In this document: positions 15,553 to 35,127 of the stretch, piece by piece | How positions within the stretch are numbered: position 1 is the first letter of the stretch | Layout: every line of letters begins with the position of its first letter | Origin: Bacillus sp. SJS | GTDB taxonomy: Bacteria; Bacillota; Bacilli; Bacillales; Bacillaceae | Direction: 5' to 3' | Length of the DNA: 64,000 bases | Assembly: GCF_000732485.2 (NCBI RefSeq) | Contig: NZ_JAQV02000019.1 | Coordinates: forward strand, 62,001 to 126,000 | Program-made: the position numbers and the translations under genes | Notes under the pieces: model-generated | Database searches by the model: none | Seen by the model: the letters and a program-made list of their open reading frames with translations, nothing else | What the model was told of the DNA's origin: nothing

Positions 15553-15646
15553 CCCCTAACAAAGGGTAATAATTTTATTTACTGATATACATTTAATGGA
15601 TTATAATTAAAATAGGAATTTAATCTTACATAGAAGGTGAATAGTT

Positions 15647-16064: not shown

Positions 16065-16079
16065 ATTATTATTATTATT
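16065..16079. repeat. ATT trinucleotide microsatellite in the dptF leader
   Basis: Five tandem ATT units end 21 bases before the dptF start, just ahead of its AAAAGGTGA/AGAGAGA ribosome site. The remaining 15833-16064 stretch is AT-rich; it must hold the operon promoter but no clear -35/-10 pair stands out. Confidence 0.6.
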
Positions 16080-16100
16080 TTGAAAAGGTGAAGAGAGATA

Positions 16101-17855
16101 ATGAACAATTTTGTTGCTTACTTGAATACTTTAAACAATGCTAATAGCTCCAATGAGAATGCTTTAGCAGAAGCTCAGATAACTAATAATTATTATAAAA
16201 AGTTCCACGTAGAAAGAAATTTGGGGTTTTATCTTGCAGAAAAGCTAAAGGAGAAACCTACATGCGTGATACTCACTGGACATGCTGGGGATGGTAAAAC
16301 TAGTTTAGTGTACCAAATTCTTAAATCACTAAAAATGATTGAAGAGGGCAGCAGTTTAAAAAAACATGAACAAAAATATTCTATCGAGTTAGAACGTGAC
16401 CTTTTATATATAAAAGATATGAGCGAGTTAATGGAGGAAAAACAATTAGAGTTATTAAGAAAGGCTATAAAGGGAAAAAAGGACGGGGTTTCTTCAATAG
16501 TGGTCTCCAATACTGGTCCTTTAATAAATACTTTCCGCCAATTAATTAAGATTGGACATATAAAAAATGTTTCTGAAGATATTGCGGAAATGAAGTTGCT
16601 AGAAGTAATGGATAAAAATAGTGGAGTAGAGATTACAGTTGGAGACAGTGAAATATTATTAATAAACATGGCTCGTATAGACAACGTAGTATTGGTACCC
16701 AAATTGATAGATCGTATAAGTTCTGATGAATTATGGGAAGGTTGTACAAACTGTCAAAAAGTAGATGCTTGTCCAATTTATAATAACTATAAATCAATTA
16801 AAGATAATAAAACAAATGTTAATTCTTTTGTCACAAGCTATTATCGTTGGTTATTTGAATTAGATAGAAGATTGACTGTTAGGCAAATACTTGCACAGTT
16901 ATCCTATTCGATGACTGGAAATTTGACGTGTAATGACGTTTCTGAATCATCAAGTTCAGAAATGAAATTTAGATACCACTTTAGTAATTTATTTTTTGGT
17001 TATAAAGGATTAGAGGTAAACGAGGAAGCTAGGCAAATTCGAGCGATAGAAGAATTGCAGGAACTCAACTTAGACAGTAAAGAGACAAAATATGATTATG
17101 ATTTTTTTGTTAAAAATGATTTCACTCATTTAACAGATTCAACAAAAGAAGTTGCTTTTGAAATATGGGATAAAAGAAGTCAAAAATATAGACTAAAACC
17201 AGTAGATTTTATGCAAACTGATGAACCTTATCAGTTAAGAAAGGCTATTCGTAGAATGAACTTTCTTTTCGGTAGATTCAATGAAGAAACTACAAATTAT
17301 TTACTCGACCAATTATTTTCACCTGTTTTTAGTAATTATATAAGCTATAGAAGCAAAAAAGTGACAGTAAAAGAAAAAAGAAATGTTAAAGCAACAATAT
17401 ATAAAGCTTTAAATTTTATTCTAGTAGGAACTCACCTTGAAAAAGATATGGGAAAAATATATCTTCCTTTACAAAGGCATGGCACAGGTAATCAAAATGT
17501 ACAATTATTGCTAGGGGAACTTAATGATAATGACATTAATGTAGATCAAGAGTATCTGGGATCAATATATGATGATGATGAGAGTCATTATGAAATAAAC
17601 CTTATATTTTCAAGTGGGAAAAAGTTTAAAATTCCTTTAATGTTATTTGATTACTTTAATCGAATTTCTTTGGGGGCAGTAACCACTAGCATAAACCCCT
17701 CCTTAAGTCATGGAATTGATACTATGAAATCTCAGCTGTTTAACGATTATAAGTATCGTGATGAGAATGAAATAATTAGATTACTCATTCATACTCTGAA
17801 TGGACCAAAATTAATTAAGCTGCAAATAGATCAACTGGAATTATTTGTAGATTAA
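16101..17855 (+). CDS. dptF: DNA phosphorothioation-dependent restriction protein DptF (DndF)
   Basis: 584 residues, normal length for DptF. A P-loop ATPase: Walker A GHAGDGKTS at 60-68, the HAGDGKT variant I associate with this family. A cysteine knuckle (C215, C218, C224 in CTNCQKVDACPI) follows, as in DptF homologues. In Dnd systems DptF works with DptG and DptH to restrict DNA that lacks phosphorothioate marks. It opens the eight-gene island cluster; dptG starts 11 bases downstream. Assignment rests on motif, size and gene order. Confidence 0.83.
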   Translation: MNNFVAYLNTLNNANSSNENALAEAQITNNYYKKFHVERNLGFYLAEKLKEKPTCVILTGHAGDGKTSLVYQILKSLKMIEEGSSLKKHEQKYSIELERDLLYIKDMSELMEEKQLELLRKAIKGKKDGVSSIVVSNTGPLINTFRQLIKIGHIKNVSEDIAEMKLLEVMDKNSGVEITVGDSEILLINMARIDNVVLVPKLIDRISSDELWEGCTNCQKVDACPIYNNYKSIKDNKTNVNSFVTSYYRWLFELDRRLTVRQILAQLSYSMTGNLTCNDVSESSSSEMKFRYHFSNLFFGYKGLEVNEEARQIRAIEELQELNLDSKETKYDYDFFVKNDFTHLTDSTKEVAFEIWDKRSQKYRLKPVDFMQTDEPYQLRKAIRRMNFLFGRFNEETTNYLLDQLFSPVFSNYISYRSKKVTVKEKRNVKATIYKALNFILVGTHLEKDMGKIYLPLQRHGTGNQNVQLLLGELNDNDINVDQEYLGSIYDDDESHYEINLIFSSGKKFKIPLMLFDYFNRISLGAVTTSINPSLSHGIDTMKSQLFNDYKYRDENEIIRLLIHTLNGPKLIKLQIDQLELFVD

Positions 17856-17866
17856 GGAGTGTATAA

Positions 17867-19414
17867 ATGTCAGTAAAACTAAACAATACTACTTTGTTTC
17901 CTAACGCAAATTTTGACATCTATAAACAAAATATCCAAATACAAACGTATGGACAAAGATTATTCAGAGATCAGACCCTATATGAATACTTATTAGAATT
18001 TTTAGTGATTTTTTCTTCGCCTAAAAAGGTTTCTAAAGAAGAAATGTCTGAGGGGAGATATAAGTTTGAAACCATAACAGAGGAGCATAACGATAACTTA
18101 GTTTACTATCCATCTCCTAAAATGGCTTTAAAACGATTCATCTTTTTAAATAGAAGTGAAATTGATAAACGATTTAATGTAGATATAGATGCATTAGAAG
18201 AACACAGAGAACTATTAAAAGATAAGATTTCTACTGAAGATCCAAATATTAACAAAGAATTTATACTTAATGTATTACAAGACTTATTATATGGGTTTAA
18301 TGCCATAATAGGTAAACGCTCATGGTTTGCTCAATCATTACTACCTATGGCCCCAGAATTAATTTTTTGCGAGGCAATCGGAAGCAAAACTGAAAGAGAA
18401 AGAATAAATTCAACATCAAATATTAAAGAAGTTGATGGGAAATTTGATTTTAATTATCGGGCATTTATGGCAAGAGGTGGAGAAGTATACTATCTACACG
18501 TTCTTCAAGGTATACAAGAATTGCCGGAGATAAAAGAAAAATTAGAATCAAGAATAAAAAGTTTGATTACAAGTGTTCCTCAACTCAGCAAAATATCAAA
18601 ATTTTTACAAAATAACTGGGAATTAGATAAATTTAAAGATCTAAAAGAGATCGAAGAAGATCCTATTGAAAAATTAGATTATATTAAAAAGAAAATGGAG
18701 TGGATACCAGACAATTATAGAAAAAGAGGAGCAAATACAGTAGAAGAATTGCTAAACCTTTTGTCATCTTCAGTTAACACAACTGAGAAAATAGAATTAT
18801 TCACTTCACTGATTGCTTTACAAGTTATTAGAATGATGTGTTTACAAGCTCAAATTACCTTATATGGAATAGATAACGGTGAATGGTTGATTGATGTAAT
18901 AAATGATCCTAGCCATCAGATACGCAAAATGGCTGTAACTTCTTATGAAAGACTAGAAGAAAACGTATTCAGAGCAGTGCATCATGCTGATCTAGAAGGA
19001 TATATGGATAAAGGTGAACATAATAGAACTAAAGAGGCTATTTATGAAGAGGCTTCTAAAGATTCAAACAGACTTATAAGAAAACTTGGGAAGCAAATTG
19101 GACTTATTATACCACCAAAAGGTGGAAATATGAGGTTGAGTATTAATGAGAGCTTAATTAAGGTATTAGTATTAGCAATTGTACCCCCAGGGAAAAGAAT
19201 GTTATATACAACATTTTTAAATAAATGTTATGAGCATTTTAAAATAATTATTGGTTCTACAGAAGCTAAGAAGCATTGGTTGGAAAATAATGAATTAGAC
19301 GTAACTATTTTTAATGCAAATTCAGAAAAGTTTCAGATAATGTTAAAAGATTGTGGGTTTTTAAGGGATCTATCAGATTCTACATCCATCGTTGAAAACC
19401 CATTTCAGGAGTGA
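17867..19414 (+). CDS. dptG: DNA phosphorothioation-dependent restriction protein DptG (DndG)
   Basis: 515 residues, soluble, largely helical, rich in Lys/Glu; no nucleotide-binding or nuclease motif visible. I call it DptG from its place between a recognisable DptF and DptH and its fitting size; DptG proteins are poorly conserved and have no known catalytic motif. AAGGAG lies seven bases before the ATG. The stop codon overlaps the ribosome site of dptH, so the two are tightly coupled. Confidence 0.68.
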   Translation: MSVKLNNTTLFPNANFDIYKQNIQIQTYGQRLFRDQTLYEYLLEFLVIFSSPKKVSKEEMSEGRYKFETITEEHNDNLVYYPSPKMALKRFIFLNRSEIDKRFNVDIDALEEHRELLKDKISTEDPNINKEFILNVLQDLLYGFNAIIGKRSWFAQSLLPMAPELIFCEAIGSKTERERINSTSNIKEVDGKFDFNYRAFMARGGEVYYLHVLQGIQELPEIKEKLESRIKSLITSVPQLSKISKFLQNNWELDKFKDLKEIEEDPIEKLDYIKKKMEWIPDNYRKRGANTVEELLNLLSSSVNTTEKIELFTSLIALQVIRMMCLQAQITLYGIDNGEWLIDVINDPSHQIRKMAVTSYERLEENVFRAVHHADLEGYMDKGEHNRTKEAIYEEASKDSNRLIRKLGKQIGLIIPPKGGNMRLSINESLIKVLVLAIVPPGKRMLYTTFLNKCYEHFKIIIGSTEAKKHWLENNELDVTIFNANSEKFQIMLKDCGFLRDLSDSTSIVENPFQE

Positions 19415-19421
19415 AAATTAA

Positions 19422-22400
19422 TTGATACATTATATAGATGAAATTATAACCATATTAGAAGAGAAGATTGATTTTAACAATAATAATAATTCCTATTTAT
19501 TTCGTCTGGATAATTTTTTGCATCCAAAAATTTACTTAGAAGTAAGCAGTTACTTCAAAAAAAAGTCATCTGAGCAGGGAGTAAGATTCAAAGCAAAGCT
19601 AGCAAAAGAGCAATGGAAAAACTTCAAGGATCAAGAAGAATATATAGTGTATCTTGATAAGCTTGAACAAGAAGATTTTGTTGAACAAGAAGCACAAATG
19701 ACAACCTGGAGAAACTCAATTGCTGACCAAAAAGGAATTTTATTTCTTATGGGAACTGAAAATGTTCAAGATAAAGGAGGTTTAGCTGATTTTTATAAAG
19801 TTTCACCAGAAATAATTGAAAGAAAAATAGGGAAAAAATATGCAAATTGGTTCGAAAAAATGATAGAGCTGGATGATCAGTATGAAGTGAATGCCGTTAA
19901 TCACTTCTTTGATCATTTATTTCGGGTTATACCAAAAGACTTATACAAATTGAGTAGTGTAATAGACCGTTTAGAAACTAAAAATTTATTTGGAATTAAT
20001 GAGGTATTAGGGGAGATTGGATATAATTTTGTTGAAGATTGGGGATTACCTACATTCTATGAACTAGATAATAAAACAATTACCCAATTATCAAAAAAGG
20101 GAAAGTTTGATTTATTGGAAAAGTCATATAAGTTCAAGAGTAGAGCAGAATTTAAAGACGGACTAACTAAAGCTAAATTCTCTAAACTTGAAAAAAGAAT
20201 TAAAGAATTTAAAGGTAACGAGAAATTTGAAGAGTTTGGAAAGCAAATTGAAGATGTGAATAAAATGTTCGGATCATTTGATAATTTCGAGAATGCATTA
20301 ACTGATTATTTTAAGGGGATAAATCTCGATACCTTAAGACCAATGTTATTTCAGTTAGATTTTAATTTAATCAATGCTATTGTAAACTTTAAAATTGCTA
20401 AAACCGGTTCTTCAAAAAAAGATACAATAACTAAAATATATGGATCTCCTATTGAAGCGTTTTCAAAGATGATATTTAGCAGCTTAATGACACTAGAAAA
20501 TTTAGGCGAGCAAGAAAAGAAACCGTTATTAACGATCACATTAAACGAAGCTGTACTTTCAAATTATTTAGAGGACAATATCTACGATTTATACAATGCC
20601 TGGTCAAAAATATGTTTTGCAACCGGCGGACTACTTGAATATTTGCAAGAGGAATTAGAAGAGTATATTACTGTTCGATACAAAAGTAATGAAGATCCTT
20701 TTCAGATTTCATATTCTGATAACCTCTCTATAAAACCAACAAAAGGAACTCAAACACTTTCATATATTCATATTTCTGTGCAAATCCAAGATTCTGATAG
20801 ACAAATGGAATATAAGTGGGTATTTAATCCAAATGATCACTGGTTAAATACATTTGATATAAATTTGCTTGATCAATTGTTAGACCAATGTGAAACATCG
20901 ACTGGATTTCTTCCTATATTTAGTAACGTTTCTTTAGGTAATTTATTAAGTAGCGTTGATTCAGAAATCTTCTTTCATCAATTAAGTGGTTCTAGACAGG
21001 ATTTTTGTAATGTATTTGAGCTGTTTCCAATGGAATTACAAGAAGGAAGCATAACGACTAGGCTATATCAACTTAGTAGCCCATTCAAAGAATTTATTAA
21101 AGATTTAAAGAAATATGGTTTTTATAACACTGTAAATGCGAGAAAATCAAGATCTGCTCTTCTTTTTATAGAAAAGTACACAAATGTACTAGAATCTTTA
21201 GTTGAAAACTATTCAAGTATTGATACTGTTGAGAGAAAATACATTTATTTAGTGACGAATCTATTCTTAATGGTTCAATCTAAAGATGTTGCAAAAGAGG
21301 AGTATTTAAAAGGTGCCATAGTACCACCAATACATCCTGCTATGTTAGAGAAAATGATTGAACAACAAGCATTTTATCGCCAAGGTCTAAATACTCTTCT
21401 AATTGAGTTAGTTAATGGTAATCCAAATTGTCAATTCGAAAAAATGATCGACAATATAGCAAGACAATCTACCATAATTACAGGTTTAGATACAATTGTT
21501 TCTGAAAGCTCTACTAATCGTCTAACGAAAGAAGTATTTGGATATTATGGTTTGCATGGCGAAGTGTTAGAAGAGGAATCATTAGAATCAATGGCGCTGC
21601 TGGACAATGATTTAATATTTGATGAAGACTTTAATACTAAAGAAATGCTGACTAATTCATTTATGTCTCGTTTAATAGAACAAAAACTAATGGAATATGT
21701 TCAAACTTTTCCAGCTCAATCTGATTCAATAAAAATAGGGTTTGTTAATTTTGATCATCTTCAACCAGTGGTTGCTGGGGTGCATGGGTTTATAGAAAAA
21801 TTAAAAGATTTGTCACATCCTACTATTATCAAATTACAAATCATTTCTCCTAGTCATCTTCAAGAAGGAAGAACCTATGTTAATTTTTGGCTAGATAACT
21901 TTTTTGAAGAAGAAGATAACGTTAGTATTGAAACATATTATAGAAGCATAAATTTACGAACTGGAAATAGCTCTATTCTAAAAGAAGTAATTTTAGAACA
22001 TGATCTGATTTTTACCAATAATGTTATGAGTACAGGGAGAATTTCTAATCGACATACTGGTGAAGCAAACATAACTCCTTCAGATACTCGGTTTCCTATG
22101 GTATTTCATCCAATGCCAATTTATGGAGCTGAAAGCGGTAGAGCAGTTTCTATAAGCCAAAGACAATTTCAAGCAGCGTTTATACACTCTCAGTTATCCC
22201 ATAGAATAGAAAATCCTGATAGCAAAGATGGCATATATAGAGTAGAAAAAGAACTTTTTATGTCTGATCAAATGAAAACTGTGCTTGACATATTACATGA
22301 TAAAGCTAGATGGGTAGTATCTCTTGATACTGGACTGGATAGGAAATTTTTTGGTCAGGATAAAGTCATCAGCTTCTCAACTGGAGAAGGTCCATACGGT

Positions 22401-24635
22401 GAATTAAATATGACTATTTCAGCGTCCAGTAAGGTGCGAGAAGATGTAATTAATAAGCTTACTAAAAGACTTAAAAATATTTTTCCTTCTTGGGATAAGG
22501 AAAAATTATTTGCTTGTGCTCAGTTCTGTATTGATCAATCAAAAAATTTAGACGGTATAAAAATACTAAAATCTTTAAACCCCTATGATTATGAAGTACA
22601 CAGCTTTTTATCGTATATTTTGTCAGCCAAAAGTCTCAATATAAACACTCAAGAACCGAATTTGCTATTAAAGGCATATATTCCCTTAGATTCTTATATG
22701 CATTGGTTCGTGGATACGCCAAATAGACCGGATTACCTACTCATTGAAATCAATAAAGAAGGAATAAATTCTGAAATTATTGACATAAATGCTACTGTTA
22801 TTGAATGTAAGATGGGAAAAGAAAATAATCAGCAGATAGAAAAAGGGATGAAGCAGCTAAGTAATTGCGTTTCTTACCTTGCTGATATTTTTTATGGGTC
22901 ATCGAGAGTTTTTAATAGACGATATTGGTTTGCACAACTATATCGGGCTTTAGTTTTTTCTCCTAACTTCGTATCTGCTAAAGAAGAGGACCAAATTTCT
23001 TTCAACAAAAATTTGCTAAAAATTTTAGATGGTAAATTTAAAATCAATTGGTCTGCGAAATTACTAACATATTGGCTTGATTACAATGAAGAAAAAATCT
23101 CTGAAAAGGAAATTCAGCTTGAAGGATCAAGTGTTCCTTGTATACACGAAGCATTTGGACAAATTTATATTCAAAAAAATTTACTTCCTAATGAAATGTT
23201 AGAAAACATAACATTTGAAGCAGTGGGAAAAAATCTACGTGTTTTTGCTAATAATAAACAGGATTTTGAATTATTAATCAATGAGTTTGAAACCGAAGTA
23301 GTCGATTCAGAAGAGGTAACATTAGTTGAAGTGGATAAACAAGAAGCAAATAGCCCATTAGAAAAACATGAGAAATCTGGAGCGGAAGTAGATAATTCTC
23401 AGGAGTCAACTTTTAACGGGAATAGAAATATGATTAGTCAAGTCAAACATTCTAATGATTTAGAAAAAGAAGAGAGAAATAAATTCAATAATCCAACGCC
23501 TCTGGAGAAAGTTAGAATTTTATTAGGGAAAGATACTATAACTCAAAAGGATATTTACTGGGAATATGGACACCCGCAACTAGAAAATAGACACATACTT
23601 ATATCAGGTAAATCAGGAGTAGGGAAAACCTATTTTATACAGTGCCTTCTATATGAATTAGCTAGGAATGGAATTTCGAGTATTGTGTTTGATTATACGG
23701 ATGGCTTTAAAAAATCAAAATTAGAACCAGAATTTAAGGAAGCTCTCTCTGATGACATAGAACAATTTTTGGTTTTTAGAGACAAATTCCCTGTAAATCC
23801 ATTCAAAAGAAACCTTAAAGAATTAGATGAAGATGAATTTTTACCTGAAAGTGATGAAGATGTGGCTGAGAGAATTAAAAGTGTCTTCTCAGCGGTATAC
23901 AAAGACATTGGATCACAGCAAGCAAATGCTCTGTATCAAGCTACAAAGGAAGGTTTGAAAAAATACGGAGATGCAATGGATTTAAATTTACTGGGAGTAG
24001 AGTTAGAAGCTTTAGGTACATCCTATGCTCTAACTACCCTTTCAAAAATTCAATCCATAATTGATAGAAATCCATTTAATACGACATCCTCTTACAATTG
24101 GGATGAGCATCTTGAGAAAAAAGGTAAAGTTTTCATTGTACAACTTACTGGATTCAATAGAGATGTGCAGCTGGTTATTACTGAGTTTATCTTATGGGAT
24201 CTATGGAACTATTTATTAACTCATGGAGATAAAGTAAAACCATTTCCAGCAATAATTGATGAAGCACAAAATTTAGATCATAGTGAAAAATCTCCAAGCG
24301 CAAAAATTTTAACAGAAGGAAGGAAATTTGGTTGGTCTGGATGGTATGCCACCCAGTTTATGCAGGGGCAATTAGGTAAAGATGAAATCCAACGATTGCA
24401 AAATTCAAGTCAAAAAATATATTTTTCTCCTCCGGAAGAAGAGATCACCAATATCGCATCTTACTTAGATACTGATTCACACAAACGTAAAGAATGGGCC
24501 AAAAGATTATCTGGTTTAAGAAAAGGCCAATGTGTTGTTTGGGGACCTATTTTAAATACTGAAGGCAATCTAGAAAGGAAAGGACCTAGAATTGTTGATG
24601 TATCACCATTTTCTAGAAGGGTTAAAGAAGAATGA
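19422..24635 (+). CDS. dptH: DNA phosphorothioation-dependent restriction protein DptH (DndH)
   Basis: 1737 residues, matching the unusual length of DptH. The N-terminal 1200 residues are helical with no recognised motif; an acidic, low-complexity linker (about 1285-1360) precedes a C-terminal HerA/FtsK-like motor with Walker A GKSGVGKT at 1396-1403 and Walker B IIDEAQ at 1612-1616. DptH is thought to drive translocation or cleavage of unmodified DNA with DptF and DptG. The start is TTG, served by the GGAG that overlaps the dptG stop. Its stop overlaps the next start by four bases (ATGA), joining the restriction genes to the following module. Confidence 0.85.
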   Translation: MIHYIDEIITILEEKIDFNNNNNSYLFRLDNFLHPKIYLEVSSYFKKKSSEQGVRFKAKLAKEQWKNFKDQEEYIVYLDKLEQEDFVEQEAQMTTWRNSIADQKGILFLMGTENVQDKGGLADFYKVSPEIIERKIGKKYANWFEKMIELDDQYEVNAVNHFFDHLFRVIPKDLYKLSSVIDRLETKNLFGINEVLGEIGYNFVEDWGLPTFYELDNKTITQLSKKGKFDLLEKSYKFKSRAEFKDGLTKAKFSKLEKRIKEFKGNEKFEEFGKQIEDVNKMFGSFDNFENALTDYFKGINLDTLRPMLFQLDFNLINAIVNFKIAKTGSSKKDTITKIYGSPIEAFSKMIFSSLMTLENLGEQEKKPLLTITLNEAVLSNYLEDNIYDLYNAWSKICFATGGLLEYLQEELEEYITVRYKSNEDPFQISYSDNLSIKPTKGTQTLSYIHISVQIQDSDRQMEYKWVFNPNDHWLNTFDINLLDQLLDQCETSTGFLPIFSNVSLGNLLSSVDSEIFFHQLSGSRQDFCNVFELFPMELQEGSITTRLYQLSSPFKEFIKDLKKYGFYNTVNARKSRSALLFIEKYTNVLESLVENYSSIDTVERKYIYLVTNLFLMVQSKDVAKEEYLKGAIVPPIHPAMLEKMIEQQAFYRQGLNTLLIELVNGNPNCQFEKMIDNIARQSTIITGLDTIVSESSTNRLTKEVFGYYGLHGEVLEEESLESMALLDNDLIFDEDFNTKEMLTNSFMSRLIEQKLMEYVQTFPAQSDSIKIGFVNFDHLQPVVAGVHGFIEKLKDLSHPTIIKLQIISPSHLQEGRTYVNFWLDNFFEEEDNVSIETYYRSINLRTGNSSILKEVILEHDLIFTNNVMSTGRISNRHTGEANITPSDTRFPMVFHPMPIYGAESGRAVSISQRQFQAAFIHSQLSHRIENPDSKDGIYRVEKELFMSDQMKTVLDILHDKARWVVSLDTGLDRKFFGQDKVISFSTGEGPYGELNMTISASSKVREDVINKLTKRLKNIFPSWDKEKLFACAQFCIDQSKNLDGIKILKSLNPYDYEVHSFLSYILSAKSLNINTQEPNLLLKAYIPLDSYMHWFVDTPNRPDYLLIEINKEGINSEIIDINATVIECKMGKENNQQIEKGMKQLSNCVSYLADIFYGSSRVFNRRYWFAQLYRALVFSPNFVSAKEEDQISFNKNLLKILDGKFKINWSAKLLTYWLDYNEEKISEKEIQLEGSSVPCIHEAFGQIYIQKNLLPNEMLENITFEAVGKNLRVFANNKQDFELLINEFETEVVDSEEVTLVEVDKQEANSPLEKHEKSGAEVDNSQESTFNGNRNMISQVKHSNDLEKEERNKFNNPTPLEKVRILLGKDTITQKDIYWEYGHPQLENRHILISGKSGVGKTYFIQCLLYELARNGISSIVFDYTDGFKKSKLEPEFKEALSDDIEQFLVFRDKFPVNPFKRNLKELDEDEFLPESDEDVAERIKSVFSAVYKDIGSQQANALYQATKEGLKKYGDAMDLNLLGVELEALGTSYALTTLSKIQSIIDRNPFNTTSSYNWDEHLEKKGKVFIVQLTGFNRDVQLVITEFILWDLWNYLLTHGDKVKPFPAIIDEAQNLDHSEKSPSAKILTEGRKFGWSGWYATQFMQGQLGKDEIQRLQNSSQKIYFSPPEEEITNIASYLDTDSHKRKEWAKRLSGLRKGQCVVWGPILNTEGNLERKGPRIVDVSPFSRRVKEE

Positions 24636-25453: not shown

Positions 25454-25468
25454 TGGGAGAATGTAAGT

Positions 25469-28400
25469 ATGGAAGGGCTAAAGATAAAAGATGTGCTTCG
25501 TTTTAAAAAGGAACTTTATTTTAATGGCGCGGTTCAGGTTGATTGGTTTTACCACCAAGAAAAGCAATTAGAAGTTGCAAAAAGTTTTGTATTTCATGGT
25601 CCAGAATATTTTGGAGTCAGTGAAGCTGATATTACCTTTAAAAGTCATAAGCTAGTTGATACTGCTACTTTTACTAGAATTATCGGCAATAAGTTATATG
25701 GAGAAACTAATGGGTCAAATTTCACCATGACAATCGCTCCATATGGTACAGGAAAATCACACTTGGCTGTTACGATAGCTTCACTATTCGGAACCCATGA
25801 AGCAGTTTCTAATAATATAATTTCTAACTTAAAAAAAGTGGATAAAAATATTAGTACTGAAATTGAAAATCTTCACACAAAACCTAATCTTGTTCTTGTA
25901 CTTAATGGAATGAAAGATTTTAATTTAAACTATGAGATATTAAATGCTACTCAGAAAGTTTTAACCATGCATAATATAGATGGGGCGTTCCTTCAAACAT
26001 TAACAAAATCTTATGAAATAGCTAAAAATTTTCTAATTAATACTTTTTCAACGTTTAGAGACTTATACGAAAGTGCCAGAAGGGAATTACTTCCAAATGT
26101 AGTAACTTCTACTTTAGAAAATTATCTTTATGTTAACATTTTGCAAGATACTAATGTCTTTGAAGTAATTAATAAGGTTTACCATACAGTCAATGGTACG
26201 TATATTCGTTGGGATGAAGGGGTATCTGCGGGTGACGTACTATTAAAGATTTCACAAAATTTGTGCGGAGATAGAGGGCCATTTAATAAGATACTAGTAC
26301 TCTTTGATGAATTTGGAAGATATATTGAGTTCGCTTCTTCATATCCCACTAGAGCAGGAGATTCAGCGCTCCAACAGATATATGAGGCAGTACAAGATAG
26401 TGACGATAAAATTCTTTTTGTAGGTTTTATACAATCAGATTTAAAAAGTTATCTAACAAGAGTAGATCGTTCCTCTAATATCAATAGGTATGTAGGACGG
26501 TATGAAGCGAGTGAAAAAATACACTTGTCGTCCAATTTAGAAACAATATTTGCTAATTTAATTGAAAGAACAAATCAAATTGCGTTTAAAGAGCTAATTC
26601 AAGAAAAATTAAATAAAGAGGAAGAAACGAAAAATTGGAGAAGATTCCATACCGATCTTTTATCTTGGTTACCTTCGGCAGAAAATTCAAGTGTGTGGAA
26701 TGACTATAACCACTTTCAAAAGGTTATCCTAGAGGGAATTTATCCTCTACATCCAATGACTACATGGATGCTATCTAATCTCTCAAGTTGGTTGCAGCAA
26801 CGCTCTTCCTTAACATTTCTTGAAAAGCAAATTGAAAACTTTAATGAAGTAAAGCTACATGATTTCGGCACCTTACCTTTTATACCTGCTACATCAATAA
26901 TCCAGTCTGACTTTTTTAAAGAGTTACTTGCAGCCGAACAGGATGAAAGGAAGCAAAGTGAATATTGTATACTATATAATCAAATTCTCACTAAATTTGG
27001 TGACAAGTTTGATGAAAGACTTAAAAAAATATTAGCTGCAAATTTAATTTTAAGAATTGGTCGTTTTAAAACAAAATCTATTGAAGAGGTCAAGTCTGCA
27101 ATAGTGTATGCTTCAAATTTAACTCTAAAAGAAGTAGAGACTGGGTTATCAACTTTAGTAGATGATTTTGGAGTACTAAGCTTTGATGATGTTGCTAATG
27201 TCTTCGATTTTGTTGCAGATGCTACAGGAATAAATGATTTTAAAAGAATGATACAGAAAAAAAGGATCAAAATTAATAAAAGTTTAAATTTGAATTTAGT
27301 TTTCGAGAGTACTATTAAAGAATTACTTATGTTGGAAAATGTTGAAACTTCATTTGCACAACGTAATTATGTTGTATCAAGCGAATGGAAATATACACAA
27401 CATCTAGTTCATTTAGAAGAGGTTAATAATAAATACTTATTAGATTTGAAAAATGAGTGGGAGTTAAGTACAAAACCAGACATTCCTAAGGGGAAAGTGA
27501 TATGGGTTTATATACCTAATAATGTAGATGACTTAAAGGTCAGATCATTAGAAACGTTATTAGGAAAGCTAAAATATGACGATATCCCAATATCTCTATT
27601 CCTTTTAGATGATAAGGAAGCATTATTTTACAATTCAATTTTAGATTATCAAGTTTCAAAGCATTTTAGTGAGGAAGAAAAGGTAAAATTCGGCCGCTTT
27701 ATCCCGGAATATATCTCTAAAAGTGAAATGTTGGTAAAAGACAGATTCAATAATTTAGCAACTCAACGAATGGTTATTCGAAGCAGTGGTATTGAAAAGG
27801 TGAAGGAGCGTCTAAACAAATATACTGAAGCACAATTTGAGAGATTATATCCTGATCTTATTCCTTTTCCTTATACCGGGTTTTCCAGTAAGACATTGGG
27901 TAGGTCTAAACAAGGAGTCTCACGAATTTCAAGACTAATGCTATCTGGTATGAATTATCAAATCATCCATTCTGAAACTACAGAAATGAAAAATAGAATT
28001 GAGGAAGTTCTTTTTGATGGAAAGTTTGGTTCGTGGGGAGTAATAAATAATAACTATGGTTTTGTCTCTCCAACTAATATAAAAGTCAGAAAAATTTTTA
28101 ATGAACTTGATAAAAAATTAGAAAAAACTAAGACCTTGAACATAAGTTGGATTTTTGAAGAATATCAAAAACCACCATATGGAATTAATGACTATTCATT
28201 AGCATTATTAATCGCATCATATTTAGCACAAAGAAAAATTGAGACTCGAGTAAATTTTCAAGGTAATCGATTACGACTAGAAGAATGGGGAAAGCAAGTC
28301 TATCTTGACAAGGAAATTAGATTACAGAATCTCCTAGATAGTTCTATTGAAAAAGTAGATATAGATGAACTATCTACCCGATATCTATCCCTTTCAATTA

Positions 28401-29743
28401 AAGTTGAAAGAAACAATGATGTAGATTATTGTCCAAGTCTTTATAAAGAATTAGAGCAGCTGAAAATAGAAGAAGATATACCTGAAAACTTACAAGATAA
28501 AGTTGCCCACATGGAAATGGTGCTACAGTTAGGACTCGGACTTCATGAAAAAACTACAAAAAGTATAGGTGCACTTAAAGCAACTTTTGAAAAGGGTATT
28601 CGAGATAAGGACTTTAAAAAAATATTTGAGGTCATAGAAAAAAGTGAAGTACTTAATGGATCCATAGAAGACTCATCAAGGTATTTTTACAACGAAAAAC
28701 ACATAGAATTATCTGAAAGTTTAATGGAAAAATCTCATGAATTTATCAATTTAGAATTTAATAATTGGCTTTTAAGATTAAAATGCCAAAGTATCGGGCA
28801 AGTTACTCTTTTTGAAAAATGGGTTAAAGATATTATTACCTATTTAATAAAATACGACTATAAAGAAGAAGCAAGAAAAACTCGTTCAAAATTAGAAAAG
28901 ATTTTAGATGATCTTACAGTTGTTCATAAGCTTCAAAATATAAATGGTACAGTTTTAGAATATTTGAGAAAAAGTAATCCAACAGAAAACATGGGATATG
29001 ATGTACTTTTAATTTTAAAAAGGGAAGGCCAGGATTTAGTTGATTTTATATTAAGCCATAATGTTGATAGAAATTATTTAGAAAGTTACTTAGAAAAATT
29101 AGATCCTAGAGTGAAATTATTAGAAGAAAAAATTGAAAAATTAACAGAAGAGATTACCAGTGTATATGATGCATTTTTTGATTTAAACGACATAGATGCT
29201 TGTGAACTTGTCTTAGTAAAAGCAAAAGCTCTTTTATCAAGAACACTAAAAGAAGAAGATAGGAAAAGCATTGAGCAAAGTGCAAATGAGCTTCAAAATT
29301 TCTTAAATGATACAGGGATCGTAGAAAAAATTAAAGAAGATCGTAAGGCACTTAATATAGAACTTCTGCTACTAGAAGAAAAATGGTATGAGATAGAATC
29401 CGATATAGATTTTATTCAGCTTATTGATTCTTATAAACGAAAAGTATTAAATCATATCAATAGTTTAGAAGAAAAATGGATAAAAAGATACTTAACAAAT
29501 CAGCAAAGTTTAATTAATTGGACCGTAACAGAATGTACTACATGGTTAAATGATACAAGTATATTGCCGCATTACTTAACTTTAGAAACATCTATTGAGC
29601 TTAATAATGTGAATAAAATGGTTATGAGAAGATTAAGCGAACTCTCTATCGAAGGGGTCCTTAGTTTATTCAATAATTTAACTGAAGAGCAAAAAAAAGT
29701 ATGCTATGATAAATTAGTATCTCAAATGAAAGTCCTAAGCTAA
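25469..29743 (+). CDS. Giant P-loop ATPase A of the island
   Basis: 1424 residues. Walker A PYGTGKS (G93-S97) and Walker B LFDEFGR (D280, E281) define an AAA-type ATPase domain in the first 450 residues. EGIYPLHP...LSNLSSWL...TFLE follows at about 425-460. The rest is long and helical with coiled-coil-like heptads (about 1190-1330). The same DEFGR and YPLHP motifs occur in ATPase B. BrxC/PglY proteins of BREX systems are similar in size and style, but I cannot align them here. Likely role, by inference: DNA-dependent motor or scaffold for the modification/restriction complex. Confidence 0.72.
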   Translation: MEGLKIKDVLRFKKELYFNGAVQVDWFYHQEKQLEVAKSFVFHGPEYFGVSEADITFKSHKLVDTATFTRIIGNKLYGETNGSNFTMTIAPYGTGKSHLAVTIASLFGTHEAVSNNIISNLKKVDKNISTEIENLHTKPNLVLVLNGMKDFNLNYEILNATQKVLTMHNIDGAFLQTLTKSYEIAKNFLINTFSTFRDLYESARRELLPNVVTSTLENYLYVNILQDTNVFEVINKVYHTVNGTYIRWDEGVSAGDVLLKISQNLCGDRGPFNKILVLFDEFGRYIEFASSYPTRAGDSALQQIYEAVQDSDDKILFVGFIQSDLKSYLTRVDRSSNINRYVGRYEASEKIHLSSNLETIFANLIERTNQIAFKELIQEKLNKEEETKNWRRFHTDLLSWLPSAENSSVWNDYNHFQKVILEGIYPLHPMTTWMLSNLSSWLQQRSSLTFLEKQIENFNEVKLHDFGTLPFIPATSIIQSDFFKELLAAEQDERKQSEYCILYNQILTKFGDKFDERLKKILAANLILRIGRFKTKSIEEVKSAIVYASNLTLKEVETGLSTLVDDFGVLSFDDVANVFDFVADATGINDFKRMIQKKRIKINKSLNLNLVFESTIKELLMLENVETSFAQRNYVVSSEWKYTQHLVHLEEVNNKYLLDLKNEWELSTKPDIPKGKVIWVYIPNNVDDLKVRSLETLLGKLKYDDIPISLFLLDDKEALFYNSILDYQVSKHFSEEEKVKFGRFIPEYISKSEMLVKDRFNNLATQRMVIRSSGIEKVKERLNKYTEAQFERLYPDLIPFPYTGFSSKTLGRSKQGVSRISRLMLSGMNYQIIHSETTEMKNRIEEVLFDGKFGSWGVINNNYGFVSPTNIKVRKIFNELDKKLEKTKTLNISWIFEEYQKPPYGINDYSLALLIASYLAQRKIETRVNFQGNRLRLEEWGKQVYLDKEIRLQNLLDSSIEKVDIDELSTRYLSLSIKVERNNDVDYCPSLYKELEQLKIEEDIPENLQDKVAHMEMVLQLGLGLHEKTTKSIGALKATFEKGIRDKDFKKIFEVIEKSEVLNGSIEDSSRYFYNEKHIELSESLMEKSHEFINLEFNNWLLRLKCQSIGQVTLFEKWVKDIITYLIKYDYKEEARKTRSKLEKILDDLTVVHKLQNINGTVLEYLRKSNPTENMGYDVLLILKREGQDLVDFILSHNVDRNYLESYLEKLDPRVKLLEEKIEKLTEEITSVYDAFFDLNDIDACELVLVKAKALLSRTLKEEDRKSIEQSANELQNFLNDTGIVEKIKEDRKALNIELLLLEEKWYEIESDIDFIQLIDSYKRKVLNHINSLEEKWIKRYLTNQQSLINWTVTECTTWLNDTSILPHYLTLETSIELNNVNKMVMRRLSELSIEGVLSLFNNLTEEQKKVCYDKLVSQMKVLS

Positions 29744-29765
29744 ATCAGTGATATAAGTGATTGAG

Positions 29766-29786
29766 CATCTAGATAATATCTAGATG
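29766..29786. promoter_or_regulatory. Perfect palindrome between ATPase A and DUF4007-B
   Basis: Arms CATCTAGAT and ATCTAGATG flank AAT, followed by TCTTCTTTTG. This is the only gap of over 20 bases inside the eight-gene cluster (107 bases). It could be a weak AT-rich terminator, an RNA processing site or an operator for an internal promoter. Confidence 0.55.
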
Positions 29787-29850
29787 TCTTCTTTTGTATT
29801 ACACCCTCACTGGAATACGAGCTCCAGGAGGAAATGAAAGGAAGTTTTTT

Positions 29851-30729
29851 ATGGGTTATGGTCAACATCAAAGTTTTTATTTAAGAGATAGATGGCTAAA
29901 TAAAGCTATTAATCATCTTAGACAAGATAATAGATTCTTTTATGATAAAGAAGCCTTTGAGAAAATGGGACTTGGAAAAAATATGGTTCAATCTCTTAGG
30001 TATTGGGTTGTAGCAACGGGTGTTGTAGAAGAAGTGTTCAATGAGGAGCGTAAAAAAGTTCATTTAATTACTAAGATTGGTGAATTAGTTTATAAGTATG
30101 ATAAATTTGTGAAATTTCAGGATACTGCCTCAATTCTACACTACCACTTGTGTAGACAAAAAGAGCCTAGTACTGCTTGGTACTGGTTTTTTAATGTTTT
30201 AAATGAAACGGTGATTACTAAAGAAAATTTATCTATGAAGTTTACTACCTGGGTTAGAGATTGTGAAATTAAATCCTTTTCAAATAACTCTCTAAAAAAA
30301 GACATAGATTGTCTTGTAAAGCTTTATACTGCTGGTCAAAGTAATATTGATCCAGAAGAAGTGATTCAAAGTCCTTTAAGCAAACTGACAATTATAGAAG
30401 ACAAAAAAGGAATAATATACAAACGAAATTTGTCAATTTCAAAAATAGGTCTAACAGCGTTAATGTATGTACTTTTAGAATACAAATCATTAAATAACAT
30501 TGAAACAGTATCAGTAGATGAATTAGTTACAGAATACGGACTATGGGGAAGAATTTATAACATGAATAGATCTACAGTGGTAACTGCCCTTAATCAATTA
30601 ACATTGCACCCTATATATCCAATACATTTTACTCGAACTAACAATTTAGACTTAATTAGAATTCCCAACATAGAACCTCTGGAGTTTTTGAAAACAGAAT
30701 ATATTCGAAAGGTTGAAGTTTTAACATGA
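29851..30729 (+). CDS. DUF4007 protein B
   Basis: 292 residues from ATG 29851, which has AAAGGAAG six bases upstream; a TTG at 29794 is in frame but reads through the leader and is less likely. This is a canonical DUF4007 protein: GQHQSFYLRDRWL at the N-terminus, LGKNMVQSLRYWVVATGVV, then DTASILHYHLC and STAWYWFFNVLNE. The N-terminal part looks winged-helix-like, suggesting DNA binding. Function is not established. Its stop overlaps the start of ATPase B (ATGA), so the two are probably made in fixed ratio and act together. Confidence 0.82.
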   Translation: MGYGQHQSFYLRDRWLNKAINHLRQDNRFFYDKEAFEKMGLGKNMVQSLRYWVVATGVVEEVFNEERKKVHLITKIGELVYKYDKFVKFQDTASILHYHLCRQKEPSTAWYWFFNVLNETVITKENLSMKFTTWVRDCEIKSFSNNSLKKDIDCLVKLYTAGQSNIDPEEVIQSPLSKLTIIEDKKGIIYKRNLSISKIGLTALMYVLLEYKSLNNIETVSVDELVTEYGLWGRIYNMNRSTVVTALNQLTLHPIYPIHFTRTNNLDLIRIPNIEPLEFLKTEYIRKVEVLT

Positions 30730-33700
30730 AAACTGCAGCCGCTACTTTTAAGACAAGCGTAAACATAAAATTCGATTTAGGAAAAAAAGAGTTTGTTGAT
30801 CGCTACCTTCCAACTCCATCTCATGCAGAATCTCTACTTGGTTTATTAAGGGGATTTAATGATCCTTTAAATAATAAGCGATCACATATAATTGTAGGGC
30901 CATATGGTACAGGTAAATCTCTAGTTGCTACCATTATAGGAAATATCGCTTCTAAACGAATAGACAATAGCACTTATAAGAGTTTACTGGGTAAATTCAA
31001 TAAAGTTCATGGTGATATATATCAAGAGTTACAAAAAACTAAAGATATTGAAAAAAAATATCTAACAGTTGTCCTCAACGGTAATGAAGGTCGGTTCCGT
31101 GAGGCTATACTAACGGCTATTATAAAAACAATCAACGAAAATAATATTAATATTGTTTTACCAGGTCAATATGGAAAAATAATTGATACTATTAATCTAT
31201 GGGAAAATCATTATCCAAAAACTTACAAAGAATTCAAAAAGAAACTAAAGGATTCTAATAAAGATTTAAATATATGGCGTATAGCTATTATGAACCAGGA
31301 TAAATATGAAGTGGATTGGTTCTTATCAATCTATCCAGATTTAACATCCGGCGCAAGTTTCACCATAGATTTTAATGAAAGTTTTATAAATCAAATAATT
31401 TCAGTGTTAGATGAATTAAACAATCAAAATCTAGGTTTATTTATAGCATATGATGAGTTTGGTCGTTTACTCCAAACATTAGAGTCACGTGATATTCATG
31501 ACACAATGCAAGATCTACAGGATTTGGCTGAGCTTGCAGACCATTACAATGATAATCTTCATATTCTGCTAATAACTCATAGAAACTTACGACAATATTT
31601 TAATTTCTTGAATGAAGAGTATAAAAATGAGTTCCAAAGAATTGAAAAACGATTTAAGGTTTACAATGTAGAAAGTGACAAATCTACTTTCGTTAGGTTA
31701 GCTGATAATATAATTCAAAATTTAAAAACAAACAGCGCCCCTGATAATGCATATAAGTATGAAATTAATCAATATTTAAGGAAGTACCCATTGTTTCCAG
31801 AACTTAACCAGCAAGAAATTGAAAGGATAATAGTTGAAGGAATATATCCCTTACATCCAGTAGCATTATATCTTCTTCCTTACCTTTCGAGCAATCATGG
31901 ACAAAACGAGAGAACTTTATTTACATTTCTGGAAAGTAATGAAACTGGTGGTTTGTTAAACCACTTATATAAAACAAAACAGTATTATCTAGCTGCTAAC
32001 TTATTTACGTACTTTTTTCCAAACTTACATGATGTAGATACAAATAAAGATGAACTTAAAGATTTAAGAGTTTATAAATCTTTGATTTCTAAAACGCCTG
32101 AAATATTAACCGATAATAATGCTTTATCCCTTGTTAAAGTTATTACACTATGGCAATTAGCGGGCCTTCAATCAAGTAATAGATTAGATACTGATTTTCT
32201 TTGTTTTGCGTTAGACATGAGTTTGGAAAGTATCACTAAACTGTTAACAAAATTATCTTTGTTAAAAATTATCCGGTTTAATCGTGTGTTAGGTTATTGG
32301 GAGTTATTGGAAGGTAGCTCCTTCCATATCGATCAATTGATTAATGATCATGAACCACAGTTGTCGATAACAAAACAAAAACAAATGTCAGTATTAGAAA
32401 ATTGTTTGCCGAAACATTTTTTCTTCGCCAATGAATATAACGATAGAAAGAGCATTACACGCTATGCAAATGTTAAATTTATAGCTAGCTCAGAAATAAT
32501 AAATGATAATTCAGCCACTTTTATTGATGAAGACTTCACGAGTGATGCAACAGTTTTTTATGTCTTACTGGAGTCCTCAAATGAATTTAGTCCTGTTCTT
32601 GAAAAATTAAAGCAAGTGCAAGTGGAACCACTGTTGTTCTGTATTTCTCGCTTACCCTATACAGCAATAGAAGACCAACTTAGAGAGTATTTTATTATAA
32701 AGACACTGCTAAATAATGATGAAATTCTTAGTGAGGATAAAAACCTAAGACAAGAATTATTATTGAAAAAAGAAGACCTGAATTTTGTAATAGAAGATTT
32801 TCTATCTAAATATGTATCATATGATAGTGACACAATTTGGATGCATAAAGGTGAAATAATTGATGTTACGAGTGAAATTCTTTTAGAGAATAAATTAAGT
32901 GATATAATGTTCCATCTTTTCCCCCATACACCAGAGGTTAGAAATGATTCTTTTAATCGTAAAAGGTTGAATAATGTTCAGAAAAAAGCGGGCCAGATAG
33001 TTCTGGATCATTTAATAAACGACTATAATAAACGAAATTTGGGTATTGAAGGCCACGGACCAGATTATCTTATTTATGCAACTGTCCTTAAAAATAATAA
33101 TCTCGATATTACCAATCTCAATGAAATTAAATCTAATGAATATAGCATACTGAGAACTGCATTGGTTAATCATCTAGAGCATAATACTAAAGGTACTCTC
33201 CAAGATTTTGTTAATATTATGGTGAAACCTCCATTTGGTATCAGGGAGCCGCTAATACCTATATATTTAGTATCTTTGCTAAGAGATAAATGGGACCATT
33301 TTATGTTTTATCGTAATGATTTATTTGTATCGGGGATAAATGGAGAAAAGCTATTTATGATGTTTTATGAGGCTAGAGAATATAAATATATTTATTATAA
33401 TTTCAATAATGAATTTCAAAAGTTTTTTCAAATGTTAGAAAAAGAATTTGGTTCTTATGAGAATGAACTTATAAGAAACAAACCTATTGTAATCAGATTA
33501 AATAATGCTCTTCTGAGTTGGTTAAGAGGATTACCTAGGATTACACAAACTACCGTTTTTATAAATAAAGAGCTAATTACATTAAAAGATACAATTCGGC
33601 GTAGTGAGATAAATCCACAAGAGAGCCTTACAAAATTGTTTGAATTGTATAAAGATGATGCCTTTCAAAATCTATTGGAAAAAAAATCAGAATTGGAAAA

Positions 33701-34175
33701 TCATTTTTATGCTTACAAGGATGAACTCAAAAATCAGATTCTATCCATAACTAAACAGGAAGATTTTAATAGACTTGTTATGTGGGCCGAAGTACAACCT
33801 CCTAAAGTTAAAAAGCAAAATAGTTTAGTTAAAAGTATCCTGCACTGTTTAAGTGAGGACACTTGGCTATGTGATTTTGCTTTCAATTACGTAGGTGTTG
33901 AAATAGAAGATTGGTCAGACAAAACAAAAGAGGTCTTTGAAAATCAGATTGCTTCTGATTTTAAGGCTACATTAGAACAAGATCGAGAACAGGAAAATCA
34001 CCATCAGATTACTTATAATGGAAAAGTTAAAACTGTAAATAAAACTAATCTTTCAAAAAAATCTGAAACTATATATATGAATGTTGAGAGAATGATAAGA
34101 AACGCCGGCCGTAACGTCACAAAAGATGAAATAGAGTGTCTGGTATTAAAGTTAGTTGATGAATTTATAGAGTAG
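30726..34175 (+). CDS. Giant P-loop ATPase B of the island
   Basis: 1149 residues. Walker A VGPYGTGKS (G61-S65) and Walker B AYDEFGR (D243, E244), then IVEGIYPLHPVALYLLPYLS...ERTLFTFLE, which lines up closely with ATPase A. It is therefore a shorter paralogue of the 1424-residue protein, lacking about 275 residues, mostly in the C-terminal helical part. Translationally coupled to DUF4007-B by a four-base overlap and followed after 14 bases by the PAPS-reductase-like gene. Inferred role as for ATPase A; function unproven. Confidence 0.72.
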   Translation: MKTAAATFKTSVNIKFDLGKKEFVDRYLPTPSHAESLLGLLRGFNDPLNNKRSHIIVGPYGTGKSLVATIIGNIASKRIDNSTYKSLLGKFNKVHGDIYQELQKTKDIEKKYLTVVLNGNEGRFREAILTAIIKTINENNINIVLPGQYGKIIDTINLWENHYPKTYKEFKKKLKDSNKDLNIWRIAIMNQDKYEVDWFLSIYPDLTSGASFTIDFNESFINQIISVLDELNNQNLGLFIAYDEFGRLLQTLESRDIHDTMQDLQDLAELADHYNDNLHILLITHRNLRQYFNFLNEEYKNEFQRIEKRFKVYNVESDKSTFVRLADNIIQNLKTNSAPDNAYKYEINQYLRKYPLFPELNQQEIERIIVEGIYPLHPVALYLLPYLSSNHGQNERTLFTFLESNETGGLLNHLYKTKQYYLAANLFTYFFPNLHDVDTNKDELKDLRVYKSLISKTPEILTDNNALSLVKVITLWQLAGLQSSNRLDTDFLCFALDMSLESITKLLTKLSLLKIIRFNRVLGYWELLEGSSFHIDQLINDHEPQLSITKQKQMSVLENCLPKHFFFANEYNDRKSITRYANVKFIASSEIINDNSATFIDEDFTSDATVFYVLLESSNEFSPVLEKLKQVQVEPLLFCISRLPYTAIEDQLREYFIIKTLLNNDEILSEDKNLRQELLLKKEDLNFVIEDFLSKYVSYDSDTIWMHKGEIIDVTSEILLENKLSDIMFHLFPHTPEVRNDSFNRKRLNNVQKKAGQIVLDHLINDYNKRNLGIEGHGPDYLIYATVLKNNNLDITNLNEIKSNEYSILRTALVNHLEHNTKGTLQDFVNIMVKPPFGIREPLIPIYLVSLLRDKWDHFMFYRNDLFVSGINGEKLFMMFYEAREYKYIYYNFNNEFQKFFQMLEKEFGSYENELIRNKPIVIRLNNALLSWLRGLPRITQTTVFINKELITLKDTIRRSEINPQESLTKLFELYKDDAFQNLLEKKSELENHFYAYKDELKNQILSITKQEDFNRLVMWAEVQPPKVKKQNSLVKSILHCLSEDTWLCDFAFNYVGVEIEDWSDKTKEVFENQIASDFKATLEQDREQENHHQITYNGKVKTVNKTNLSKKSETIYMNVERMIRNAGRNVTKDEIECLVLKLVDEFIE

Positions 34176-34189
34176 GAGTTGAACATATA

Positions 34190-35023
34190 ATGGAAAGAAA
34201 ACCTGTCCATGTAGCAATGTTCAGTGGTGGCGCTTCTAGTGCATATATAGCTTATAATATGGTCCAAGCATACGGTAAAGAAAACAGTATTCTATTCTTT
34301 ACAAATACTTTATGGGAAGATGATGATAACTATAGATTTATGGATGAGGTCGCTGATTATATCGGCCTTGAAATTACCGAACGCGTCGATGGAAGAACAC
34401 CCGAAGAAGTTTTTTATGATTATCGTTTTTTGGGGAATTCTAGATTAGCAAAGTGTTCAGAAGAGTTGAAGGTTTATCAAACAATTGTTTTTCTCGAAGA
34501 ACTGAGGGATGTTCATAATCTCGAACCAATTCTTTACTTTGGAATTGGGCCTCACGAATCTCATCGAGCAGTTAATCTTAAAGAGTTTTATGAACATCGA
34601 CCAGTGGAACCTATACAAACACGATTCCCAATGATTGATACTTTTAAAGCAGATATAGATGTAAAATCAATTATCGAGAATGAATGGGGAATAAAGCTAC
34701 CTAGAATGTATACTATTGCAGAAAAAATGAAACCAGAGCTTGGGATAAAAGGTTTTTCACATGCCAATTGCGGAGGAAGGTGCGTAAGAGGTGGTTTTCA
34801 GCATTATGCTTTACTTTATGCAGTCTGGCCAGATAAATATGCAGAACAAGAGGAAATGGAAGAAAACTTTAGAAAGCATTTTGAAAAGAATGTGTCAATT
34901 TTGAAAAAAGATAGCAAACCTTATACTTTAAGGGAATACCGTGAGCGTATGGAATTAGAGGGCTATGATCAATTTCTACAAAAAAGTGATGATACTGTTC
35001 CATGTGTTTGTTCATTTTCATAA
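34190..35023 (+). CDS. PAPS reductase/DndC-like PP-loop protein
   Basis: 277 residues. The PP-loop FSGGASSAY (residues 11-19) is that of the PAPS-reductase/ATP-pyrophosphatase fold, which adenylates a substrate before sulfur transfer. Cysteines at 89 (RLAKCSEELK), 194 and 198 (HANCGGRC) could ligate an iron-sulfur cluster, and a C-terminal PCVC pair sits at 272/274. DndC and SspD, which activate DNA for phosphorothioation, belong to this superfamily; this protein is far shorter than the roughly 500-residue DndC. Last gene of the cluster, before a terminator. Confidence 0.83.
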   Translation: MERKPVHVAMFSGGASSAYIAYNMVQAYGKENSILFFTNTLWEDDDNYRFMDEVADYIGLEITERVDGRTPEEVFYDYRFLGNSRLAKCSEELKVYQTIVFLEELRDVHNLEPILYFGIGPHESHRAVNLKEFYEHRPVEPIQTRFPMIDTFKADIDVKSIIENEWGIKLPRMYTIAEKMKPELGIKGFSHANCGGRCVRGGFQHYALLYAVWPDKYAEQEEMEENFRKHFEKNVSILKKDSKPYTLREYRERMELEGYDQFLQKSDDTVPCVCSFS

Positions 35024-35037
35024 ACGTATTTAAATTT

Positions 35038-35068
35038 GACGGGGCTATATATGCTACGTCTTTTTTTT
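35038..35068 (+). terminator. Terminator of the island operon
   Basis: GACGGGGC and GCTACGTC pair over eight bases (one mismatch, one wobble) around TATATAT, followed by eight T. It closes the transcription unit after the PP-loop gene. Confidence 0.75.
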
Positions 35069-35127
35069 GAATCATGCAGCTGATTTTGGTAATAATATGG
35101 GACAAGCGTTGATTGAGGTGATCAATA

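What the first reader, a model, noticed from the sequence alone, without database searches (positions are those of the whole stretch)
16101..35023. Hybrid DptFGH / DUF4007-ATPase / PAPS-reductase system: candidate new sulfur-based modification-restriction system
Seen: eight same-strand genes in an AT-rich island, ended by one strong terminator. The first three fit DptF, DptG and DptH by motif, size and order. They are joined by a start/stop overlap to two DUF4007-plus-giant-ATPase pairs and a PP-loop sulfur-transfer-type protein. Known: DptFGH restricts DNA lacking phosphorothioates made by DndBCDE. Inferred: the last five genes either make a phosphorothioate-like mark by a non-DndBCDE route or form a second restriction layer; together the cluster may be a self-sufficient anti-phage system. 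An alternative is a relative of the archaeal PbeABCD module, which I cannot align here.
Basis: partly seen in the sequence, partly recalled or inferred. Interest (0 to 1): 0.92.

Follow-up and report, generated by a model that had tools for sequence, protein, structure and literature searches.

The report
Sulfur-mark phage defence with duplicated module
These eight genes form a complete, widely shared bacterial anti-phage system that (by homology) marks its own DNA with sulfur and attacks unmarked DNA, and it carries an extra DNA-binding/ATPase gene pair that no description I could find includes.

Summary
The eight genes are real and form one apparent operon in a 20.7-kb island (14889-35621) that is absent from a same-species genome. 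Genes 6-8 are SspB, SspC and SspD, the known Ssp phosphorothioate writer. Genes 1-2 are SspF/SspG-like. Gene 3 has a PD-(D/E)XK nuclease motif and a DptH-type HerA motor. So most of the cluster belongs to a known kind, SspBCD-SspFGH. The genome has no DndC and no PglZ. What I did not find described is genes 4-5, here B' and C': an SspB-fold protein that has lost residues invariant in SspB, and a BrxC-like AAA+ ATPase. They are no accident of this genome: F-G-H-B'-C' recurs as a block in about ten phyla, usually with SspBCD. In an unbiased set of 398 Bacillota genomes, 8 of 8 strong G carriers also have B' and SspB. Canonical SspFGH loci lack the pair. B'C' evolves with G and H rather than with SspB and SspC, so I read it as part of the restriction side: an SspB-like site scanner plus an AAA+ organiser licensing the F-G-H nuclease/translocase on unmarked DNA. 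A related pair serves PglZ-BrxL in two plasmid loci. Verdict: a new, widespread variant of a known kind; mechanism inferred.

The parts
14889..35621 (.). AT-rich defence island (strain-variable insertion)
   Evidence: Flanks 12833-14888 and 35622-38404 lie side by side around other content in same-species L140; same-genus L141 and L142 share both breakpoints; G+C ~30%
16101..17855 (+). F: SspF-like P-loop NTPase, 584 aa, no N-terminal kinase/NERD extension
   Evidence: PADLOC SspF 7.8e-38 full length; Walker A GHAGDGKT; some relatives' F carries NERD + kinase domains
17867..19414 (+). G: SspG-like protein, 515 aa
   Evidence: PADLOC SspG 1.8e-35
19422..24635 (+). H: PD-(D/E)XK nuclease motif (PD...ECK) plus C-terminal DptH-type HerA/FtsK translocase, 1737 aa
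   Evidence: DUF87 1e-11; PADLOC DndH 319 bits vs SspH 68 bits; motif alignment
24632..25453 (+). B': diverged SspB-fold (DUF4007) protein, 273 aa
   Evidence: DUF4007 5e-11; AF2 pLDDT 95, SspB 6juf Z 21.0 over 265 residues; loss of SspB invariants
25469..29743 (+). C': BrxC-like Orc/Cdc6-type AAA+ ATPase, 1424 aa
   Evidence: PADLOC SspC only 68 bits, partial; AF2 model of residues 1-1150 matches BrxC 9zdx Z 17.4; Walker A/B conserved; one clade, SH-aLRT 100
29794..30729 (+). SspB (DUF4007) of the writer
   Evidence: DUF4007 4e-63 full length; PADLOC SspB 1.4e-53; PDB SspB 6juf 2.8e-12
30726..34175 (+). SspC (AAA+ ATPase) of the writer
   Evidence: PADLOC SspC 4e-103; Walker A GPYGTGKS
34190..35023 (+). 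SspD (PP-loop/PAPS-reductase-like sulfur transferase) of the writer
   Evidence: PADLOC SspD 5.1e-10, PF01507 1.8e-4, just below its cut-off, SGGASS PP-loop at residue 12; 464 bits to the D gene of an sspBCD locus in L032
35037..35067 (+). modest intrinsic terminator-like hairpin + T8

Best explanation
This is a self-contained, Ssp-family phosphorothioate modification-restriction system. SspB, SspC and SspD, with a housekeeping cysteine desulfurase standing in for SspA, put sulfur into one DNA strand at a short motif. F-G-H is the restriction engine: F an NTPase, G a DNA-binding subunit, H a PD-(D/E)XK nuclease fused to a HerA translocase. B'-C' belongs to that engine. B' is an SspB-fold DNA binder that has lost SspB's invariant residues, so it probably inspects sites of the SspB type without nicking or modifying them. 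C' is a BrxC-like AAA+ ATPase that binds or encircles DNA with B' and, as BrxC does for BrxB-PglZ, assembles or licenses the F-G-H nuclease/translocase on DNA lacking the mark. Shown here: gene identities, predicted folds, conservation, linkage and co-evolution. Inferred: the chemistry, the scanning role of B', the loader role of C', and mark-dependent inhibition.
For: Genes 6-8 are SspBCD. F/G/H carry NTPase, SspG and nuclease/HerA features. Relatives: 68 of 69 C' loci with enough upstream sequence have B'; where the flank is long enough, 42/46 have H, 36/42 G and 32/38 F, in Bacillota, Desulfobacterota, Pseudomonadota, Chloroflexota, Verrucomicrobiota, Bacteroidota, Cloacimonadota, Chlorobiota, Lentisphaerota, Kiritimatiellota and Sumerlaeota. 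34 of 36 such genomes have a full SspB, and 25 loci or genomes carry all of B, C, G, H, B' and C'. Unbiased: 8 of 8 strong G hits in 398 Bacillota genomes have B' and SspB. Partial Mantel r: C'~G given SspC 0.70 against C'~SspC given G 0.17; B'~G given SspB 0.82 against B'~SspB given G 0.33. B' has the SspB fold (Z 21) but lost R31, W34, K37, N63, M64, W71 and D170. C' has the BrxC fold (Z 17.4) with Walker A/B kept; published BrxC binds BrxB:PglZ in an ATP-dependent way (PMC13326643).
Against: No experiment was found for any locus with B'C'. Canonical SspFGH works without B'C' (PMC8092258), so the pair is not needed for restriction in general. The loss of SspB nickase activity in B' is inferred from lost invariants; I could not read the paper that maps the catalytic residues. 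SspD is a weak profile match. AF2 of C' is confident locally (pLDDT 86) but not in domain arrangement (pTM 0.47). Mantel tests do not fully remove shared ancestry.
Confidence: 0.68

Rival explanations
1. B'C' is a second target-selection pair of the writer: it shares SspD with SspBC and directs phosphorothioation to a second motif.
For: B' and C' are homologues of the two writer subunits that would choose the site; one SspD could serve two pairs.
Against: B'C' is joined to H, not to D, and its order relative to BCD varies; it co-evolves with G/H rather than with B/C; B' lost the residues invariant in SspB.
Confidence: 0.15
2. B'C' is a restraint (brake) that keeps the F-G-H nuclease off self DNA and releases it on infection, rather than a loader.
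For: Unrestrained SspFGH is toxic in PT-lacking cells (PMC8092258); BrxA binds BrxC and lowers its DNA binding (PMC13326643).
Against: Canonical SspFGH is restrained by the PT mark without any B'C'; no direct evidence either way.
Confidence: 0.12
3. It is simply the known SspBCD-SspFGH system with a decaying tandem duplicate of sspBC.
For: Six of eight genes match the known system.
Against: B'C' form one old clade kept across about ten phyla with intact ATPase motifs; canonical SspH has an FtsK-type motor, this H a DptH/HerA-type.
Confidence: 0.04

Closest known systems
SspABCD-SspFGH (Vibrio anguillarum FF-93; PMC8092258)
   Same: SspBCD writer plus F-G-H; the desulfurase may lie elsewhere in the genome
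   Different: Published system has no B'C'; three plasmid examples checked lack it; canonical H has an FtsK-type motor, here DptH-type HerA
DndABCDE-DndFGH (Dpt)
   Same: F-G-H layout; H's HerA motor is 51-56% identical to DptH-type proteins over ~380-440 residues
   Different: No DndC in the genome; F and G match SspF/SspG; extra B'C'
Type-4 BREX and related PT loci (PglZ-BrxL)
   Same: DUF4007 + BrxC-like ATPase + PAPS-reductase; Pseudanabaena and Thermomicrobium plasmid loci hold SspBCD plus a B'C'-like pair
   Different: The effector there is PglZ-BrxL; neither is in this cluster and no PglZ is in this genome
BREX core BrxA/BrxB/BrxC/PglZ
   Same: C' has the BrxC fold; DUF4007 has been likened to BrxA (PMC12839542)
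   Different: No methylase and no PglZ; the nuclease/translocase H takes the effector place (analogy, not shown homology)

Membership tests
SspBCD-SspFGH system | SspB, SspC, SspD writer genes together | tested here: met
   D is a weak profile hit
SspBCD-SspFGH system | three-gene F-G-H effector adjacent | tested here: met
   SspF 7.8e-38, SspG 1.8e-35, DndH/SspH
SspBCD-SspFGH system | FtsK/SpoIIIE-type SspH motor | tested here: not met
   H motor aligns with DptH (WE-YGH..L.NRH), not with SspH of L117/L118/L121
SspBCD-SspFGH system | single-strand phosphorothioate at 5'-CCA-3' | not testable with these tools
   needs LC-MS/MS
DndABCDE-DndFGH | DndC in the genome | tested here: not met
   TIGR03183 no match; PF01507 finds only CysH-like and TilS genes
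Type-4 BREX | PglZ (in all 457 taxa of PMC12839542) | tested here: not met
   PF08665 no match in the genome
Type-4 BREX | BrxL | tested here: inconclusive
   not among the eight genes by Pfam/PADLOC; not searched genome-wide
PbeABCD / CxC ABC-ATPase system | CxC ABC-ATPase, DndE cognate and HKD-helicase | tested here: not met
   none among the eight genes

The most novel reading that the evidence does not exclude
B'C' is a portable reader/coupler module, old and distinct from the SspBC writer, that connects a phosphorothioate mark to interchangeable effectors: F-G-H in this system, PglZ-BrxL in Pseudanabaena/Thermomicrobium-type loci. This would be a common logic joining Ssp, Dnd-type FGH and BREX.
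Probability: 0.4. Interest if true: 0.72.

Novelty: new variant of a known kind. Interest (0 to 1): 0.6.

Why it matters
It shows that a broad clade of F-G-H modules has an in-built phosphorothioate writer and two further subunits. The main published survey describes DndFGH as standalone and 'lacking an inbuilt modification module' (PMC10853773), and reports F proteins with NERD-kinase fusions of the sort I see in this clade. It also gives a concrete, testable link between Ssp, Dnd and BREX: the same SspB/BrxC-type pair serving different effectors. That bears on the open question of how these systems find unmarked DNA when only a small share of sites is marked.

Tried and rejected
PbeABCD: no CxC ABC-ATPase, DndE or HKD-helicase gene in the cluster. 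dndBCDE elsewhere in the genome: no DndC found. A PDB sequence search with the C' profile gave only chance-level hits; the structure model was needed. B' alone finds no SspB by sequence in the PDB; its alignment does (2e-3). The plain protein search for C' in 399 class-level genomes found no good relative; a profile was needed. In the G tree canonical SspG falls beside the Bacillota B'C' group with weak support (85) on long branches, so whether canonical SspFGH lost B'C' or never had it is open. The sister position of the PglZ-linked second ATPase (99) rests on long branches. Literature: searches for DUF4007, SspFGH/SspB/BrxC/PglZ/HerA and SspBCD subtypes found no description of the pair. Only open-access PMC papers are held, and the supplements of PMC10853773 and PMC8092258 could not be read, so prior mention there is not excluded.

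Full report
Observation. The eight-gene, single-strand cluster is real at the stated coordinates, with 4-nt overlaps between genes 3/4 and 6/7 and gaps of at most 50 nt elsewhere. It lies in a ~30% G+C island. Comparison with a same-species genome and two same-genus genomes places the island edges at 14888/14889 and 35621/35622; the relatives hold a different ~2.5-kb insert there (an ~805-aa gene), so this is a variable-insertion site. The closing terminator is present but modest.

Identity. Against PADLOC, gene 1 is SspF (7.8e-38), gene 2 SspG (1.8e-35), gene 6 SspB (1.4e-53), gene 7 SspC (4e-103), gene 8 SspD (5e-10). Gene 3 scores 319 bits as DndH and 68 as SspH. It has a PD...ECK nuclease motif and a DptH-type HerA Walker A region, whereas SspH of canonical systems has an FtsK-type motor. 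Genes 4 and 5 match SspB and SspC models only weakly and in part. The SspBCD-SspFGH pairing was published in 2021 (PMC8092258). The genome has no DndC and no PglZ, and several class-V aminotransferases that could supply SspA activity.

Genes 4-5 (B', C'). B' folds (AF2, pLDDT 95) as full-length SspB (6juf, Z 21.0, 265 residues) but has lost R31, W34, K37, G61, N63, M64, W71 and D170, which are invariant over 20 SspB, and has its own conserved motif. C' residues 1-1150 (pLDDT 86, pTM 0.47) match BrxC (9zdx, Z 17.4) and Orc/Cdc6 ATPases; Walker A and B are intact in all 18 aligned sequences. In a 59-sequence tree, C' is one clade (SH-aLRT 100) separate from SspC. Its nearest relatives are the second ATPases of two plasmid loci with PglZ and BrxL (99, long branches).

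Conservation. A genome scan with a C' profile and neighbour annotation gave 70 C' loci. B' is upstream in 68 of 69; where the flank is long enough, H in 42/46, G in 36/42 and F in 32/38, in about ten phyla. Exceptions are mainly Chromatiaceae, where BrxC/D-type ATPases and a helicase sit between H and B', and one Clostridium locus (L044). 34 of 36 of these genomes have a full SspB. Full loci run B-C-D-(desulfurase)-F-G-H-B'-C' in most lineages. The window and four other Bacillaceae/Anoxybacillaceae have F-G-H-B'-C'-B-C-D; in Domibacillus L040 the D gene is inverted. In an unbiased draw of 398 Bacillota genomes, the G profile has eight strong hits (window included), and all eight genomes carry B' and SspB; the two weak hits lack B'. 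Canonical SspFGH loci on Agrobacterium, Sphingobium and Pseudanabaena plasmids have no B'C'. DndC is over cut-off in 0 of 20 C' genomes.

Which side does B'C' serve? Over 24 complete loci, distances of C' follow G (partial r 0.70 given SspC) and not SspC (0.17 given G); B' follows G (0.82 given SspB) more than SspB (0.33 given G). B' starts within a few nt of H's end in most loci, while BCD lies on either side. In two related Pseudanabaena plasmids, nearly identical SspC sit beside different effectors: F-G-H with a DUF262 protein in one, B'C'-PglZ-BrxL in the other (SspC branch lengths 0.11 and 0.14). This points to B'C' as part of the effector side.

Mechanism (inferred). SspBCD writes a single-strand phosphorothioate. 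B' scans SspB-type sites without modifying them. C', like BrxC with BrxB:PglZ (PMC13326643), uses ATP to assemble or license F-G-H on unmarked DNA, where H cuts and translocates. In the canonical system SspFGH damages PT-free DNA and is toxic without the mark (PMC8092258). The two main rivals are that B'C' is a second-specificity writer pair, or a brake.

Novelty. The kind is known (Ssp phosphorothioate restriction-modification). The variant is defined by the B'C' pair and a DptH-type motor in H, and I found no description of it in the open-access literature. The main survey of F-G-H modules calls DndFGH standalone, lacking an inbuilt modification module, and reports F proteins with NERD-kinase fusions like those seen here (PMC10853773; compare), so some of its set may be this system; I could not check its supplement.

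Noticed in passing
L134:673-8050, L085:580-8847: In Chromatiaceae (Thiocapsa) three BrxC/BrxD-type ATPase genes and a DEAD helicase gene sit between H and B', as if another BREX-like module had been inserted into the cassette.
   Followed up: partly
L123:5768-10333, L125, L127, L129: F in many relatives is ~1500 aa, with NERD nuclease and kinase domains fused N-terminally (Pfam-checked in L123 only); the window's F lacks them.
   Followed up: partly
L015 and L119: Related Pseudanabaena plasmids carry near-identical SspC but different effectors (B'C'-PglZ-BrxL versus F-G-H plus DUF262), a natural effector swap.
   Followed up: partly
L027:8439-19998 (also L109, Frackibacter): Another locus with two DUF4007/ATPase pairs in tandem next to a PglZ-like gene; its second ATPase is on a very long branch.
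   Followed up: no
window 35128-35532: 134-aa ORF just after the cluster matches the mycobacteriophage L5 gp82 family (PF25735, 2.6e-27).
   Followed up: no
window 43507-45048: IS605 OrfB/TnpB-like gene (PF01385, PF07282) in the right flank.
   Followed up: no
L140:2055-4567, L141:1837-4342: At the same chromosomal site, relatives carry an ~805-aa gene whose N-terminus looks PLD-nuclease-like by eye: apparently a shared defence hot spot.
   Followed up: partly
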